28,922 nucleotides of DNA from a virus. A program made the position numbers and the translations under genes. Location: positions 1 to 28,922 of the IMG/VR virus record IMGVR_UViG_3300031576_000635. One strand, given 5' to 3'. Below are positions 3,704-21,057 of the stretch, piece by piece; positions within the stretch are counted from its first letter, which is position 1, and the number at the start of each line of letters is the position of its first letter. The notes under the pieces were generated by a model, which was given only the letters and a program-made list of their open reading frames with translations, was not told the DNA's origin and did not search any database.

Positions 3704-3887
3704 TTCTTTTTTTAGAAAACTGCTTAACTTCTTTTTCATCGAGACCAGCCATAATTATCGTTTGGATGCGGGCTTCAACCAATTTCAACATATCAATCGT
3801 TACTGAAGGAAAAGCCCCTGAAGTTAACAGTTCTTCGGTTATCGCTTCTCGCAACTCCTGTATTTGTTTGTAGTCGTTAATAATCAT
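3696..3887 (-). CDS. Small hypothetical protein in the tail operon
   Basis: 63 aa, mostly helical by composition (I-Q-E-L-R-E-A-I-T-E-E-L near the N-terminus). It overlaps the 3' end of the adaptor gene by 11 bases and the following HNH gene by 8 bases, so translational coupling is likely. I recognise no family. Position between adaptor and tail protein suggests a small head-tail completion or chaperone role, but nothing in the sequence proves it. Confidence 0.6.
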   Translation of the reverse strand: MIINDYKQIQELREAITEELLTSGAFPSVTIDMLKLVEARIQTIIMAGLDEKEVKQFSKKRNG

Positions 3888-5046
3888 AGTAGTCGGATGT
3901 CATTATTTTCGCCTCGGAAGGATTTCTTAATTGATACGTTCTGGCTTTTTCCTTATATCTGCGTTCACAATCAGCGGCCACGTCATATTCTCTGACCTCG
4001 CGGGCTGCCAGTTCAGTTCCCTTTTCAATTAAAATTTCGTATTCATCGGCATCGGCAACCAATAAATCAGTCTCTGCCGTTGAATTTTCCTTATAAGCTC
4101 CCGCGGACGACTGCCAACCATATTTAGTGTAGTAATCCACGTTATGAATTACCCCCCTCTTCAAAACCAACCAATCAAATTTGTAATCAGTTTCGGAAAT
4201 TTTAGTAGTAAGTTTCGTCATGTAAATGACAAAGTATTTAATATTCGTATTGGTCGGCGTTCCTGTTGTGGAATAAGAAGCCACGTCAAATTTAAGCAAA
4301 TTCCATCCAGCCACGAATGCCGTGCCATCGGCTTGAGTGGTGACAGTTTTAGAATAATAATTTAAAGAATCGGTTCCGAATCTTAAAATATAATTAGTTA
4401 AACCAGTGGTAGAGTTTATTTTAGCCCAGACAAAAATTGAAGAAGTCCCACCAAAATAATCCGTCATATCAACAGCGTTAATAGAAGAGTGTTGAATGCC
4501 CGCCGTTGTTCCAGCCGCGGCGCTAATATTCCATTTTATACTTCCATTACCTTTTATAAAATCATCCGTGTCAGCGGCTAGGGTCGTTGCGTCTCCAAAG
4601 AGCGCCCAAGAAGACCCATCACTTGAAGCGGAAGTTAAGGAATCTAGTTCTGCAATGGTGATGGAATTAGAATCAACTTCTGAATTAATATTAAGAACCC
4701 TAGTCCCGTTATAATCTTTAATCGCTATATCCCCGATTTTTTTTCTTATATCAAATTCTCTCGGCGGAACAAGGAAAAATTCTCCGTCTTGTCTTTTAGC
4801 CTGAGCGGGGATATCTATTATTTTAAACGCCTCTAAATCAGTAGGACAGGCGTAATCAAAAATTCCGTTATACAAATTAGGAGAAAGAGTCGAGCGCCTA
4901 CGAGCAGAGCGTAAATCTAGTTCACTGAAACATTGCCTGACCGCGCGATTAGCTGTTTCATTTGCGTCAATAAGCATCCCGCTTTTACCGTGAATGCCCG
5001 CGTTTATCTGGGATTTAAACTGAGTTCTCGTATATATAAATGACAT
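3877..5046 (-). CDS. Head-tail adaptor-like protein with inserted beta-sandwich domain
   Basis: 389 aa. The N-terminal third (residues 1-120; helices with A-N-E-T-A-N-R-A-V-R and an F-D-Y-A-C-P-T-D-L strand) and the C-terminal helices (335-389; E-K-G-T-E-L-A-A-R-E-V-R-E-Y and R-R-Y-K-E-K-A) resemble podovirus adaptor or connector proteins. Between them, about residues 135-300, is a Ser/Thr/Gly-rich beta domain (G-N-G-S-I-K-W, F-V-W-A-K-I-N-S, Y-K-F-D-W-L-V-L) with the look of a carbohydrate-binding or concanavalin-like sandwich. It is the first gene after a consensus promoter at 5130-5158 and is preceded by a terminator-like hairpin. Adaptor assignment is inference from order and domain layout. 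Confidence 0.65.
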   Translation of the reverse strand: MSFIYTRTQFKSQINAGIHGKSGMLIDANETANRAVRQCFSELDLRSARRRSTLSPNLYNGIFDYACPTDLEAFKIIDIPAQAKRQDGEFFLVPPREFDIRKKIGDIAIKDYNGTRVLNINSEVDSNSITIAELDSLTSASSDGSSWALFGDATTLAADTDDFIKGNGSIKWNISAAAGTTAGIQHSSINAVDMTDYFGGTSSIFVWAKINSTTGLTNYILRFGTDSLNYYSKTVTTQADGTAFVAGWNLLKFDVASYSTTGTPTNTNIKYFVIYMTKLTTKISETDYKFDWLVLKRGVIHNVDYYTKYGWQSSAGAYKENSTAETDLLVADADEYEILIEKGTELAAREVREYDVAADCERRYKEKARTYQLRNPSEAKIMTSDYYDY

Positions 5047-11819: not shown

Positions 11820-12827
11820 CTAAGCTACTCCGTCTCCAGAACTCATCGAAACCCAAGTCGCGGAAACAATCACAATCAACCAACCAGCGCGAGTACCGAA
11901 GTTCCAAGCGTCAGTAGAGAATTCCTCTGCGTTAGAACCAGGGGTTGGAAGTTTCACATGAGCTTCCTCATGCACACCGAGGTATGCCGTGGACATCTCA
12001 CTTGAAGCAAGCCCCCAATACTTTGACTTAGTTGAATCGTTTGCACCAATCGCTGAAGTATCAAGACGAGGGAGAATGACGTGACGATACTTACCAGAGT
12101 AAGTATTAATAACACCAGGGTTGTTCTGCGTGTTATTTGAAGACGAACCAAGCGTCTCGCGGATTGCGCGATTCGTATTTGGGTCATCAGCTGACCAAAT
12201 AATATCAGCATTAATCACCATCTTCTCACCGAACTGATTGTAGGTATTTTGCTTTCTCATCGTCTCCATACTCTCAAGCGCTCCAGGGGAGAACTGAGGA
12301 TTATTAGCAAGACGATTGCGGAAAGTTGTTGACGAGCCTCGGAGAGTGTGGGCCGTGTAAAACAACTGGAAAGTATCACCTACGGTTGTTGAAACCGTAT
12401 CTCCGTCCATGTCCGTATAAGAAGTCGCCGTACCGAAGGTAAAGCGGTGGGTAAGGTCAAGGTCCAGGCGATTCGGTGCAAGCTTACCAAGATTGGTAAG
12501 TTTCTCTTTTATTTCGAGATACTTGCCCTGTGTTCGCATTTCATACGAGATACCAATATCTTTCGATACGCGGTAAAGGGTTCCTGTTTTAGAGTAACCC
12601 TGTTGCCCTCTCGCGCGAGACGACTGGTCGTCTTCGCCTTTCTTTGATGCGTACTCTTCAAGGTCAATTTCCGAGAAGGTGCGGGTGTTACCCGTCATCT
12701 GCGGAATTTGGACTTCCTTGAAAAGTCCAGAAGTTCTGGCAACCTGTGGAACGCTAGTAAATCCTTTTACCCAAAGAATTTCTGCGTTTGAAACAAAGTC
12801 CGCCAGACTGTTAATATTTAGTTCCAT
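11820..12827 (-). CDS. Major capsid protein
   Basis: 335 aa, a usual size for HK97-fold capsid proteins without a long propeptide. The N-terminal arm is followed by V-Q-I-P-Q-M-T-G-N-T-R-T-F-S-E-I-D and a charged loop (Y-A-S-K-K-G-E-D-D-Q). Then comes a long spine-like helix region (L-D-L-D-L-T-H-R-F-T-F-G). A C-terminal P-domain-like stretch has A-D-I-I-W-S-A-D-D-P-N and the end strand G-W-L-I-V-I-V-S-A-T-W-V. Its place after portal, scaffold and decoration-like genes supports the call. It starts without a Shine-Dalgarno behind an A/T-rich leader. The fold is inferred, not computed. Confidence 0.8.
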   Translation of the reverse strand: MELNINSLADFVSNAEILWVKGFTSVPQVARTSGLFKEVQIPQMTGNTRTFSEIDLEEYASKKGEDDQSSRARGQQGYSKTGTLYRVSKDIGISYEMRTQGKYLEIKEKLTNLGKLAPNRLDLDLTHRFTFGTATSYTDMDGDTVSTTVGDTFQLFYTAHTLRGSSTTFRNRLANNPQFSPGALESMETMRKQNTYNQFGEKMVINADIIWSADDPNTNRAIRETLGSSSNNTQNNPGVINTYSGKYRHVILPRLDTSAIGANDSTKSKYWGLASSEMSTAYLGVHEEAHVKLPTPGSNAEEFSTDAWNFGTRAGWLIVIVSATWVSMSSGDGVA

Positions 12828-12852: not shown

Positions 12853-13269
12853 TTAATAAGCACCGTCAACTTTCAAGTAACCGCGAACTTTAGTAGCAGT
12901 CACAACCTCAATCACTTTGAAGGCCTTGGCGGTTGTTTCAGTAAAGTCAACAGTTCCTGAATCAGAGATTCCGTACTCCACACCTTCATCGGTACCACCA
13001 ACAGTAAAGCCAGTGGCATCAGCCTCCCAAATAACATGCCTCTCGGTTGGTACTCTAATACCAACTTTTCTTGCGGTAGCGTAATCAGAATCGGTGGAAG
13101 CAATGGTTTTAACCAAAGTACCAATGATATTATCTGCCGCTTCATCAGCGTCCGCAGCAGCGATTCGGCCAGACGTAAACTCAACCAACGTATCTTTTGT
13201 AAGAGCCGTTGATACAGTTACTGGCATCGGAACCACTTTTACTTTTCCTCTATATACTCTAAAAGCCAT
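12853..13269 (-). CDS. Capsid decoration-like small protein
   Basis: 138 aa from the ATG at 13269 (MAFRVYRGKVKV). A longer frame to 13365 adds 32 residues that run into the structured leader and look non-coding. It is beta-rich and acidic: T-K-D-T-L-V-E-F-T-S-G-R-I-A-A-A, then D-N-I-I-G-T-L-V-K-T-I. This is the arrangement seen in small head-decoration or capsid-stabilising proteins encoded just before the capsid gene, often described as DUF2190-like. It is separated from the capsid gene by 25 bases and preceded by a structured non-coding stretch. Confidence 0.65.
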   Translation of the reverse strand: MAFRVYRGKVKVVPMPVTVSTALTKDTLVEFTSGRIAAADADEAADNIIGTLVKTIASTDSDYATARKVGIRVPTERHVIWEADATGFTVGGTDEGVEYGISDSGTVDFTETTAKAFKVIEVVTATKVRGYLKVDGAY

Positions 13270-13311
13270 AAATGATAAATAAATTATTTGACTCTTGTAA
13301 TAAAATGCTAA

Positions 13312-13392
13312 TTTTTTGACTAGAGTTTTAATCTCCGAAGGGAAGCAGCCTACTTCCCACAGCAATGTTTTTTAACTAGAGTTGTCTCTCCG
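13312..13392. repeat. Direct repeat pair in the leader before the decoration/capsid genes
   Basis: Two copies of a ~25-base unit: 13312-13337 and 13368-13392, both starting TTTTTT(G/A)ACTAGAGTT and ending TCTCCG, with few differences. Between them lies a hairpin (GGGAAG/CTTCCC on the minus strand). They sit upstream of the gene starting at 13269 on the transcribed minus strand. Function is unknown; a regulatory or RNA-structural role is likely. Confidence 0.6.
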
Positions 13393-13394
13393 CT

Positions 13395-13448
13395 CTCTCT
13401 GCTTGTTTGCAGAGAGTTCAGGTCCAGTCGCTTAGACCCGAACTCTCT
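13395..13448. repeat. Two overlapping, mutually exclusive hairpins
   Basis: Hairpin A: CTCTCTGC (13395-13402) with GCAGAGAG (13409-13416). Hairpin B: AGAGAGTTC (13411-13419) with GAACTCTCT (13440-13448), enclosing GGTC/GACC and a 10-base loop CAGTCGCTTA (13425-13434). Both need the AGAGAG at 13411-13416, so only one can form, as in switching RNAs. The loop of B is one of four loops in the window containing CAGTCGCT. Confidence 0.65.
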
Positions 13449-13450
13449 AT

Positions 13451-13507
13451 AAACAAAAATGGCGATGTCGAAAAATTCCATTACGAAACTTTTTTGACAT
13501 CGCCATT
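13451..13507 (-). terminator. Strong intrinsic terminator ending the packaging/portal operon
   Basis: An 18-bp stem (13458-13475 with 13490-13507, one wobble) with GGCGATGTC at its base and a 14-base loop. On the minus strand it is followed by TTTTTGTTT. It comes after the last small gene of the terminase-portal-scaffold block (13604-13777) and before the capsid block. Capsid genes then need either read-through or their own promoter, which I could not identify with confidence. Confidence 0.75.
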
Positions 13508-13594
13508 CTTTGGTCGAAATCGAAACTATTTAATTTTCAATTTCCTATTACTTGTAGCATATAGCATATCTTGTCCATATGCAAAACACAACTA

Positions 13595-13603
13595 TGTGGA
13601 TAA
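13595..13603 (-). promoter_or_regulatory. Perfect DnaA box
   Basis: TTATCCACA read on the minus strand, immediately after the stop codon of the 57-aa gene. It matches the canonical DnaA-binding nonamer exactly. Two other exact copies are intergenic or leader-located (21049, 25185) and one lies inside an HNH gene (17794). Confidence 0.5.
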
Positions 13604-13777
13604 CTACAAATCCTTAGATTCGAAGGCCTTCGTTATCCTATAGGGCAAACCATCCCTAACCAGAATAATAAGCTCCCCAAAGCGAAATCTCGTCCTAATC
13701 CAATAAATTAGGTCTATTTCCTTCTGGTTTAACTCTCCCAGGTCTTTAGGTGTTATCTTTTGGTTTTTCTCTTCCAT
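13604..13777 (-). CDS. Small 57-aa protein, DUF2292-like
   Basis: 57 aa (MEEKNQKITPKDLGELN...), starting inside the 3' end of the preceding gene in another frame (32-base overlap) and ending TAG at 13604. The C-terminal half reads F-R-F-G-E-L-I-I-L-V-R-D-G-L-P-Y-R-I, a beta-hairpin pattern (Y/F-G-x-hydrophobic, then D-G-x-P) typical of the short DUF2292-type proteins of phages and mobile elements, which have no established function. Amino-acid content and codon use are convincingly coding. It is the last gene before the terminator at 13451-13507. Confidence 0.7.
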   Translation of the reverse strand: MEEKNQKITPKDLGELNQKEIDLIYWIRTRFRFGELIILVRDGLPYRITKAFESKDL

Positions 13778-17759: not shown

Positions 17760-18269
17760 TTAGCATTTAATATATGTCAAGCATATGTTTTTCTGTGGAT
17801 AAAGGTAGGGTGTTCTATTCCCCTTCTTAGAATTACACCTTCTACAGCGCGGTAAAATATTACTAATCAAATCATTTCCTCCCCTAGAAAGCGGAATAAT
17901 ATGGTCTTTTTCGATATTTTCAGTAGTTTTGCAATCCACACATTTCCCCTTATTTTTCTTTAAAAGCTCAAGCCATTCTTTATCAGAATGATGTTCTAAA
18001 ATACTCAATATTGCCCTATTTTTATATTTCTGAATTTTAGCATTATGTTTAGCTTTCGGAGTTTGCCAATATTTTTTATATGTTTCTTTACACCTCTCAT
18101 AAGATTCTCTTTTCTGTTGAAGAATTTTTTCTCTATTTTTTAATTTATATTCTTTTACTCTTGTATTTTTATTCTCCTCATACCATTTTTTACAACGAAT
18201 AATAACTTTTTCTCTATTAAGAATATGCCATTCTTTTTTATATTGTTTTATTTCTTCTTTTGTTTTCAT
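17760..18269 (-). CDS. HNH endonuclease coupled to the large terminase
   Basis: 169 aa. Residues 1-90 are Lys/Glu-rich helices with repeated K-x-x-Y/W elements, probably DNA-binding. The HNH domain is complete: C110-x-x-C113, E120-K-D122-H123-I-I-P-L-S-R-G-G, N137, C142-x-x-C145-N146. Its ATG overlaps the terminase stop as ATGA, so it is probably translated together with TerL. That fits either a packaging-associated HNH nuclease, as found beside terminases in several cos phages, or a homing endonuclease that captured this slot. It lacks NUMOD3 modules and is distinct from the other two HNH genes. A TTATCCACA (minus) lies within its 3' end at 17794-17802. Confidence 0.85.
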   Translation of the reverse strand: MKTKEEIKQYKKEWHILNREKVIIRCKKWYEENKNTRVKEYKLKNREKILQQKRESYERCKETYKKYWQTPKAKHNAKIQKYKNRAILSILEHHSDKEWLELLKKNKGKCVDCKTTENIEKDHIIPLSRGGNDLISNILPRCRRCNSKKGNRTPYLYPQKNICLTYIKC

Positions 18270-21048: not shown

Positions 21049-21057
21049 TTATCCACA
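21049..21057 (+). promoter_or_regulatory. Perfect DnaA box in the control region
   Basis: TTATCCACA on the plus strand, followed by a very AT-rich stretch (21061-21140) that could unwind. This is the layout of a DnaA-dependent origin, though only one exact box is present here. Confidence 0.5.

What the first reader, a model, noticed from the sequence alone, without database searches (positions are those of the whole stretch)
13270..13603. Structured non-coding stretch before the decoration and capsid genes
Within about 330 bases there are a strong minus-strand terminator, two mutually exclusive hairpins sharing AGAGAG, a 25-bp direct repeat pair, a smaller hairpin, and a DnaA box. No gene is present and no clear promoter was found for the heavily expressed capsid genes downstream. 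This may be a switching leader, a processed small RNA, or a terminator controlled by an antitermination factor.
Basis: partly seen in the sequence, partly recalled or inferred. Interest (0 to 1): 0.52.

Follow-up and report, generated by a model that had tools for sequence, protein, structure and literature searches.

The report
Structured RNA leader of capsid genes
The gap before this phage's capsid genes encodes a folded RNA start-piece, kept in shape but not in sequence across many related phages, that probably decides whether transcription stops early or runs on into the capsid genes.

Summary
Every feature named lies in 13270-13603, on the strand of the capsid genes, in the most structured part of the window (MFE -107.3, z -8.6). 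Relatives (82 distinct leaders) show it is the 5' leader of the decoration-capsid operon: a DnaA box, a promoter candidate, a strong intrinsic terminator, then an RNA element absent from Rfam. The "25-bp repeat" is two copies of one module, a short hairpin followed by an A-tract. In relatives the strands flanking the second hairpin pair with each other, with different letters in each phage (own 12.3 v permuted 9.7, 0 of 20,000). Models find it almost only in capsid leaders and on the coding strand. In nine leaders a terminator's 5' arm uses that helix strand, so the two folds exclude each other. In the window group the terminator lies upstream instead.

I read it as a transcription-attenuation leader acting by antitermination. 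Structure and conservation are shown; readthrough control is inferred. Host (probably Patescibacteria) and effector are not established.

The parts
13595..13603 (-). DnaA box TTATCCACA
   Evidence: exact match; 4 in window v 0.26 expected; a box with at most 1 mismatch lies at this place in 7 of 7 of the window group, the window included; a box 30-52 nt 5' of a -10 hexamer in 19 of 82 leaders v 1.4 in shuffles
13556..13584 (-). promoter candidate TTGCAT-17-TATGCT (weak consensus)
   Evidence: coordinates; inferred from position, compare L017 TTGACA-16-TATGCT and L018 TTGATT-16-TATAAT
13500..13517 (-). small pre-terminator hairpin CCA-AAGAA-TGG, overlaps the terminator 5' arm
   Evidence: stem letters vary in relatives (L016 CTG/CAG, L017 CCG/CGG); a wider pairing test was not significant
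13458..13507 (-). intrinsic terminator hairpin, reads in the direction of the capsid genes
   Evidence: conserved in shape with double changes among 7 window-group leaders
13451..13459 (-). U-run of the terminator (TTTTTGTTT)
13411..13448 (-). hairpin P, loop region AAGCGACTGG
   Evidence: loop kept in L016, L017 (one or two changes) and L088
13395..13416 (-). hairpin Q, shares 6 nt with P
   Evidence: comparable small hairpins by eye in L016, L018, L020, L021 and L088
13376..13392 (-). H1 hairpin of module copy 1
13365..13375 (-). J1 A-tract of module copy 1
13361..13364 (-). hx 5' strand TGCT
   Evidence: pairs with the hx 3' strand; partner letters change in L016-L019 and L021
13340..13358 (-). 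H3 hairpin inserted inside hx (window group)
   Evidence: stem letters differ in relatives
13320..13337 (-). H2 hairpin of module copy 2
   Evidence: best R2 hit in 1.4 kb is 13284-13337, 14.6 bits
13310..13319 (-). J2 A-tract of module copy 2
13306..13309 (-). hx 3' strand AGCA
12853..13269 (-). decoration protein gene, first gene after the leader
   Evidence: model pLDDT 89.6; weak fold matches to capsid decoration/stabilising proteins
11820..12827 (-). major capsid protein gene
   Evidence: 3 of 13 aligned family members match Phage_capsid_4 (best E 5.9e-6) and 3 of 13 the PHROG major head protein (best E 2.9e-4); the window protein itself does not

Best explanation
The stretch is the 5' leader RNA of the decoration-capsid operon. 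Transcription starts at a DnaA-box-adjacent promoter near 13550 (inferred) and soon meets a strong intrinsic terminator (13458-13507). Polymerase must pass it to make capsid mRNA, so the leader acts as an attenuator whose readthrough sets capsid expression, probably late in infection. Behind it lies a conserved RNA element: hairpin H1, A-tract, helix strand, (H3), hairpin H2, A-tract, partner strand. In several relatives the terminator is placed so that its 5' arm uses the partner strand itself; there, folding of the element must compete with termination, so the element is an antiterminator. In the window group the terminator lies upstream, and the element may act on read-through RNA or on the elongation complex. 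Shown: structure, conservation, location, strand, mutual exclusion of folds. Inferred: promoter use, readthrough control, timing, effector.
For: Modules found without using the helix: 28 of 82 leaders v 2 of 82 control stretches; own helix 12.3 v permuted 9.7, 0 of 20,000. Covariation on seeds fitted to the structure: 31 cores, 148 double-change cells v 43 shuffled and 13-28 in slid controls; 21 double modules, 132 v 35. Unsupervised RNAalifold on 7 window-group leaders: 24 of 36 pairs with a double change. Location: R1 over 36 phage records gives 18 hits, 16 in the capsid leader; R2 over 87 loci gives 28 hits, 27 on the coding strand. Terminators of -9 kcal/mol or better in 45 of 82 leaders v 12 and 15 in two shuffled sets. 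Terminator 5' arm overlaps hx 3' by 4-6 nt in L022, L027-L031, L035, L038 and L073.
Against: No RNA data. In the window the terminator precedes the element, so the element cannot be the antiterminator of that terminator. Tests for an upstream strand pairing with the terminator arm were not significant (type I 5,774 of 20,000; type II in a loose form 1,414 of 20,000). Overlap of hx with terminators was not tested against a null, and L064, L102 and L112 have a downstream terminator-like hairpin without overlap. The element is not recognised in about half of the 82 leaders. R2 did not find the window's leader copy in the 688-kb search.
Confidence: 0.55

Rival explanations
1. The element is a translation enhancer or mRNA stabiliser of the capsid genes: hairpins protect the 5' end of the processed or read-through mRNA and the A-tracts help 30S binding. 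The terminator only insulates from upstream transcription.
For: The element sits close upstream of the first structural gene whether or not a terminator follows; one relative has a second copy 2.3 kb upstream, just before another ORF, with no terminator seen there (L072); H1 and H2 are weak hairpins with exposed A-tracts.
Against: In nine relatives the helix strand is also a terminator arm, which translation or stability would not need; promoter and terminator occur together in both arrangements.
Confidence: 0.22
2. The element is an operator bound by a phage structural protein (capsid or decoration) for feedback control.
For: Model hits lie almost only in leaders of these structural genes; hairpin loops share an A-rich pattern and stems often carry a mismatch or bulge at a constant place (by eye).
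Against: No RNA-binding evidence for either protein; I know of no double-stranded-DNA phage capsid protein with an RNA operator (recalled).
Confidence: 0.08
3. Ordinary intergenic spacer: a terminator for upstream genes and a promoter for capsid genes, the remaining structure being incidental.
For: Terminators and promoters are common between phage operons; the window promoter is weak.
Against: Covariation of hx and H2 across diverged phages; promoters lie before the terminator in relatives.
Confidence: 0.1
4. The first ~100 nt are a stable small RNA made by stopping at the terminator, acting in trans.
For: Promoter-to-terminator distance is short and fairly constant in the window group.
Against: The sequence up to the terminator diverges between relatives; no target known; nothing here tests it.
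Confidence: 0.05

Closest known systems
HK022 put RNA (putL/putR)
   Same: Phage leader RNA of about 70 nt with two stem-loops downstream of a promoter, letting polymerase pass terminators (PMC9378689, passages read)
   Different: put serves early operons and is not described with paired A-tract modules or the hx helix; R1 and R2 find nothing in the HK022 stretch fetched, though put itself was not annotated or located there
Riboswitch-like leaders with terminators overlapping the conserved RNA (crcB, pfl motifs)
   Same: Conserved RNA whose strand is shared with a terminator, so folding is expected to raise expression (PMC2864571, passages read)
   Different: Those precede metabolic or stress genes and were proposed to bind ligands; here the genes are phage capsid genes and no ligand is implied
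Lambda late operon control (pR', leader terminator, Q protein)
   Same: Promoter followed by a leader terminator in front of late genes (recalled)
   Different: Q engages DNA near the promoter (recalled); no Q relative among the window proteins scanned
Lambda nut boxB / BglG-type RAT antiterminators
   Same: Short hairpin with an A-rich loop, or one overlapping a terminator (recalled)
   Different: No N or BglG/LicT relative among the window proteins scanned; stems and loops differ

Membership tests
Rfam families (release 15) | score at or above a family's gathering threshold | tested here: not met
   0 hits in window and in 16 relatives; in 14 more only tRNA and group I introns; best sub-threshold hits in the region are miRNA models
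HK022 put RNA | sequence/structure similarity to put | tested here: inconclusive
   no R1/R2 match in 15.7 kb of HK022; the put site was not located or aligned
HK022 put RNA | readthrough of terminators in cis without a phage protein | not testable with these tools
   needs transcription assays
Terminator-overlapping attenuator leader | conserved RNA strand shared with the 5' arm of an intrinsic terminator | tested here: inconclusive
   met in 9 relatives but not in the window, whose terminator is upstream of the element; no null computed for the overlap
Terminator-overlapping attenuator leader | a ligand or factor that changes the fold | not testable with these tools
Lambda Q-type late antitermination | Q-like protein encoded | tested here: inconclusive
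   no Q family hit among 21 distinct window proteins scanned (19 of them in both Pfam and PHROGs); not all ORFs were scanned and the contig is a fragment
New leader RNA family (this work) | H1-A-tract-hx-H2-A-tract-hx architecture with covarying hx | tested here: met
   window hx TGCT/AGCA, weaker than in relatives (score 10.5 v 12-14); H2 and A-tract hit 14.6 bits, E 0.05, in a local search

The most novel reading that the evidence does not exclude
A new class of cis-acting phage antiterminator RNA, built from paired hairpin-plus-A-tract modules and unrelated to put, controls capsid operons in phages of Patescibacteria. In one group it sits behind promoters marked by a DnaA box, so capsid production would be tied to the replication initiator.
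Probability: 0.2. Interest if true: 0.82.

Novelty: new variant of a known kind. Interest (0 to 1): 0.55.

Why it matters
Very little is known about gene control in phages of uncultured bacteria such as the Patescibacteria. A structured RNA that recurs in one position, ahead of the capsid genes, in dozens of phages of one lineage gives a concrete, testable handle on how they time capsid production. If it is an antiterminator it would add a new architecture to a short list of RNA elements that act on RNA polymerase in cis. The DnaA-box association would suggest a link between replication and late expression.

Tried and rejected
Known families: Rfam at gathering score and by E-value gave nothing credible. 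I considered pistol ribozyme and preQ1-I riboswitch from recalled consensus; the A-rich loops seem to lack the pairing partners those folds need, and Rfam did not report them.

Antiterminator test: helices between sequence upstream of each terminator and its 5' arm were no better than permuted ones in 19 type I leaders (5,774 of 20,000) and only weakly so in 11 type II leaders (1,414 of 20,000). I therefore keep the small AAGAA hairpin before the terminator as a lead only. Its A-rich loop also faces the U-run, as in bidirectional terminators.

The first automatic core search was noisy: at score 24 or more, 22 of 82 real, 2.7 shuffled, 12 of 217 control windows. MAFFT alone misaligned the cores (A3). 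R2 over 379 genomes of the phylum of a Woesebacteria MAG found nothing, but under those stricter filters it also missed the one copy known there, so it is uninformative. A pattern scan of viral contigs gave 5 hits: 3 on contigs already known as capsid leaders (two of them with the same leader), one inside a coding region, one unresolved (L175); a second pattern gave none. The capsid model was poor (pLDDT 33.3) and was not used. The second-leader architecture at 5176-5047 is not shared: before the homologous gene in six relatives no such leader is seen.

Rows dropped: core alignment A4 uses 31 of 82 leaders, chosen by eye; others with recognisable but irregular modules (among them L025, L032, L033, L034, L037, L039, L041, L046, L059, L129, L131, L136 and the window group) were left out. 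A6 uses 21 of those 31. The permutation test uses the 31 chosen rows; one search uses automatically found modules only.

Full report
What the stretch is. The window is a 28,922-base virus record. The structural genes run on the minus strand, so 13603 to 13270 is read as the leader of the decoration gene (12853-13269) and the capsid gene (11820-12827). The capsid call rests on relatives: 3 of 13 aligned members match a Pfam capsid family (best E 5.9e-6) and 3 of 13 a PHROG major head family (best E 2.9e-4), while the window protein has no such match. The decoration call rests on a good model (pLDDT 89.6) whose nearest solved folds include capsid or head proteins of Sf11, Pam3, phi29, phage 21 (SHP) and lambda (gpD), all weak (best E 2.2e-3).

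Observation. The 334 nt fold at -107.3 kcal/mol against -66.5 +/- 4.7 for 200 shuffles, z -8.6. Of 82 windows sampled across the contig, the two lowest z-scores (-9.7, -7.5) are the two strands of the window covering this place.

Relatives. Capsid-protein searches of viral contigs gave loci at 36-86% identity. After removing identical leaders, 82 distinct leaders including the window remained. The window and L016-L021 are called the window group.

The element. The two repeat copies are two copies of a module: a short hairpin with an A-rich loop, then a joint such as GTTAAAAAA. A detector for hairpin plus A-run that ignores everything else finds one within 170 nt of the start codon in 28 of 82 leaders and in 2 of 82 same-size control stretches. 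In these, the sequences on either side of the hairpin pair with each other: own helix score 12.3, permuted 9.7, 0 of 20,000 permutations as high, on 27 distinct cases. This is the fairest test, since nothing was picked for pairing. With 31 hand-picked cores the structure is supported by 148 cells with both sides changed against 43 in shuffles, and every slid control is far lower; with 21 double modules, 132 against 35. Those seeds were fitted to the structure, so I lean first.

Window group. RNAalifold without guidance on 7 leaders (window, L016-L019, L021, L088) finds the terminator, hairpin P and H1, with double changes in 24 of 36 pairs. The hx strands after the two A-tracts pair within each phage: scores 10.5 (window) and 12 to 14 in five relatives. 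Own pairs mostly beat cross-pairs; the exceptions are tied or higher cross-pairs for the window, L017 and L021. The window helix (TGCT/AGCA, 4 bp) is the weakest. This group has an extra hairpin H3 inside hx. In L016-L018 the H3 loop also matches sequence before the start codon (seen by eye; untested).

Where it occurs. Model R1 (core) over 36 phage records gives 18 hits in 17 records; 16 are in the capsid leader. The others are a second copy in the L072 record, 2.3 kb upstream and just before an acidic ORF, and a weak one at G002:36457. Model R2 (double module) over 87 loci gives 28 hits, 27 on the coding strand. Three of the 28 lie elsewhere: L072:1072, L030:7352 and window:21024, the one minus-strand hit of the table (which for the window is the strand of the late genes). 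L050 has the element before the gene preceding the decoration gene. Many hits are training sequences; independent ones include L050, L072, L051, L039, L064 and L032. In the large search R2 misses the window leader; in a local unfiltered search its best hit is 13284-13337, 14.6 bits, E 0.05. In the Woesebacteria MAG that carries a relative, the only hit at E up to 1 is that phage leader.

Terminators. 45 of 82 leaders have a terminator-like hairpin of -9 kcal/mol or better, against 12 and 15 in two shuffled sets. Two arrangements appear. Type I (window, L016-L021, L040, L088, L102, L129 and others): the terminator lies between promoter and element. Type II (L022, L027-L031, L035, L038, L073; by eye also L025, L032, L051): it follows the element and its 5' arm overlaps the hx 3' strand by 4-6 nt in the nine scored cases. 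The two folds exclude each other there, as reported for terminator-overlapping motifs such as crcB (PMC2864571, passages read). Counter-cases: L064, L102 and L112 have a downstream terminator-like hairpin with no overlap, and overlaps in L044 and L071 involve doubtful terminators. No null was computed for the overlap.

Promoter and DnaA box. Good sigma-70 promoters lie before the leader in relatives (L030 and L046 match 12 of 12). The window has a weak one at the same place. A DnaA box (up to 1 mismatch) sits 30-52 nt 5' of a -10 hexamer in 19 of 82 leaders against 1.4 +/- 1.2 in shuffles. Among exact boxes over 648 kb of these loci, 8 of 23 have a -10 hexamer 30-50 nt downstream, background 11%, and these are mostly window-group leaders.

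Mechanism. The best reading is attenuation of capsid-operon transcription with the RNA element as antiterminator in type II leaders. In type I the element comes after the terminator and its action is less clear; HK022 put RNA shows that a leader RNA can act on the polymerase in cis (PMC9378689, passages read). A pre-terminator hairpin CCA-AAGAA-TGG could be the type I antiterminator; its stem letters change together in L016, L017 and L040, but the broader pairing test failed. A second place in the window, 5176 to 5047, repeats box, promoter TTTACA-17-TATAAT, hairpin TGG-AAGAA-CCA and terminator, yet relatives with that gene lack it.

Novelty. No Rfam match. Paper searches for Patescibacteria or CPR phages with structured RNA or antitermination, conserved RNA near capsid genes, structured phage RNAs, and DnaA-box late promoters showed nothing on this in their listings; most subscription papers are not held. 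I file it as a new variant of a known kind: a phage leader RNA of new architecture. Host: capsid relatives lie in contigs binned as Woesebacteria, Taylorbacteria and Dependentiae, so Patescibacteria are likely but not proven.

Noticed in passing
window 5176-5047 (minus): Second leader of the same architecture before gene 3877-5046: ATATCCACA, then TTTACA-17-TATAAT starting 18 nt after the box start, hairpin TGG-AAGAA-CCA, terminator. Not seen before that gene in six relatives.
   Followed up: partly
window 13595, 17794, 21049, 25185: Four exact DnaA boxes (0.26 expected); at 21049 TTTACA-18-TATACT starts 18 nt after the box start, at 17794 a TTGACA starts 22 nt after it, just before the 677-aa ORF start.
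   Followed up: partly
L105:2325-2396, L113:2356-2427, L117:2363-2434, L120:2353-2427: Complete tRNA genes with CAT anticodon lie in the capsid leader just upstream of the module; L040, L112, L122, L124 and L131 have what look like T-arm remnants there (by eye).
   Followed up: partly
L120:3906-4098, L140:3454-3646: Group I introns (Rfam) in or next to the capsid gene; the capsid gene of the Woesebacteria contig (L141/L051) is also split.
   Followed up: no
L072:1062-1106: Second copy of the core, the best R1 hit of all (31.5 bits), directly before an acidic ORF 2.3 kb upstream of the capsid leader.
   Followed up: partly
window 13604-13777 (minus): Small 57-aa gene directly upstream of the leader with a pattern RFG...RDG-P that seems to recur in relatives at the same place (by eye in the DNA); function unknown.
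   Followed up: no
window 17760-18269 (minus): HNH endonuclease gene between the terminase-like gene and the 677-aa gene.
   Followed up: no
L175 around 8163 (reverse orientation): Exact pattern match to the hairpin-A-tract module in a GC-rich contig without a detectable capsid relative; could be chance or a wider spread of the module.
   Followed up: no
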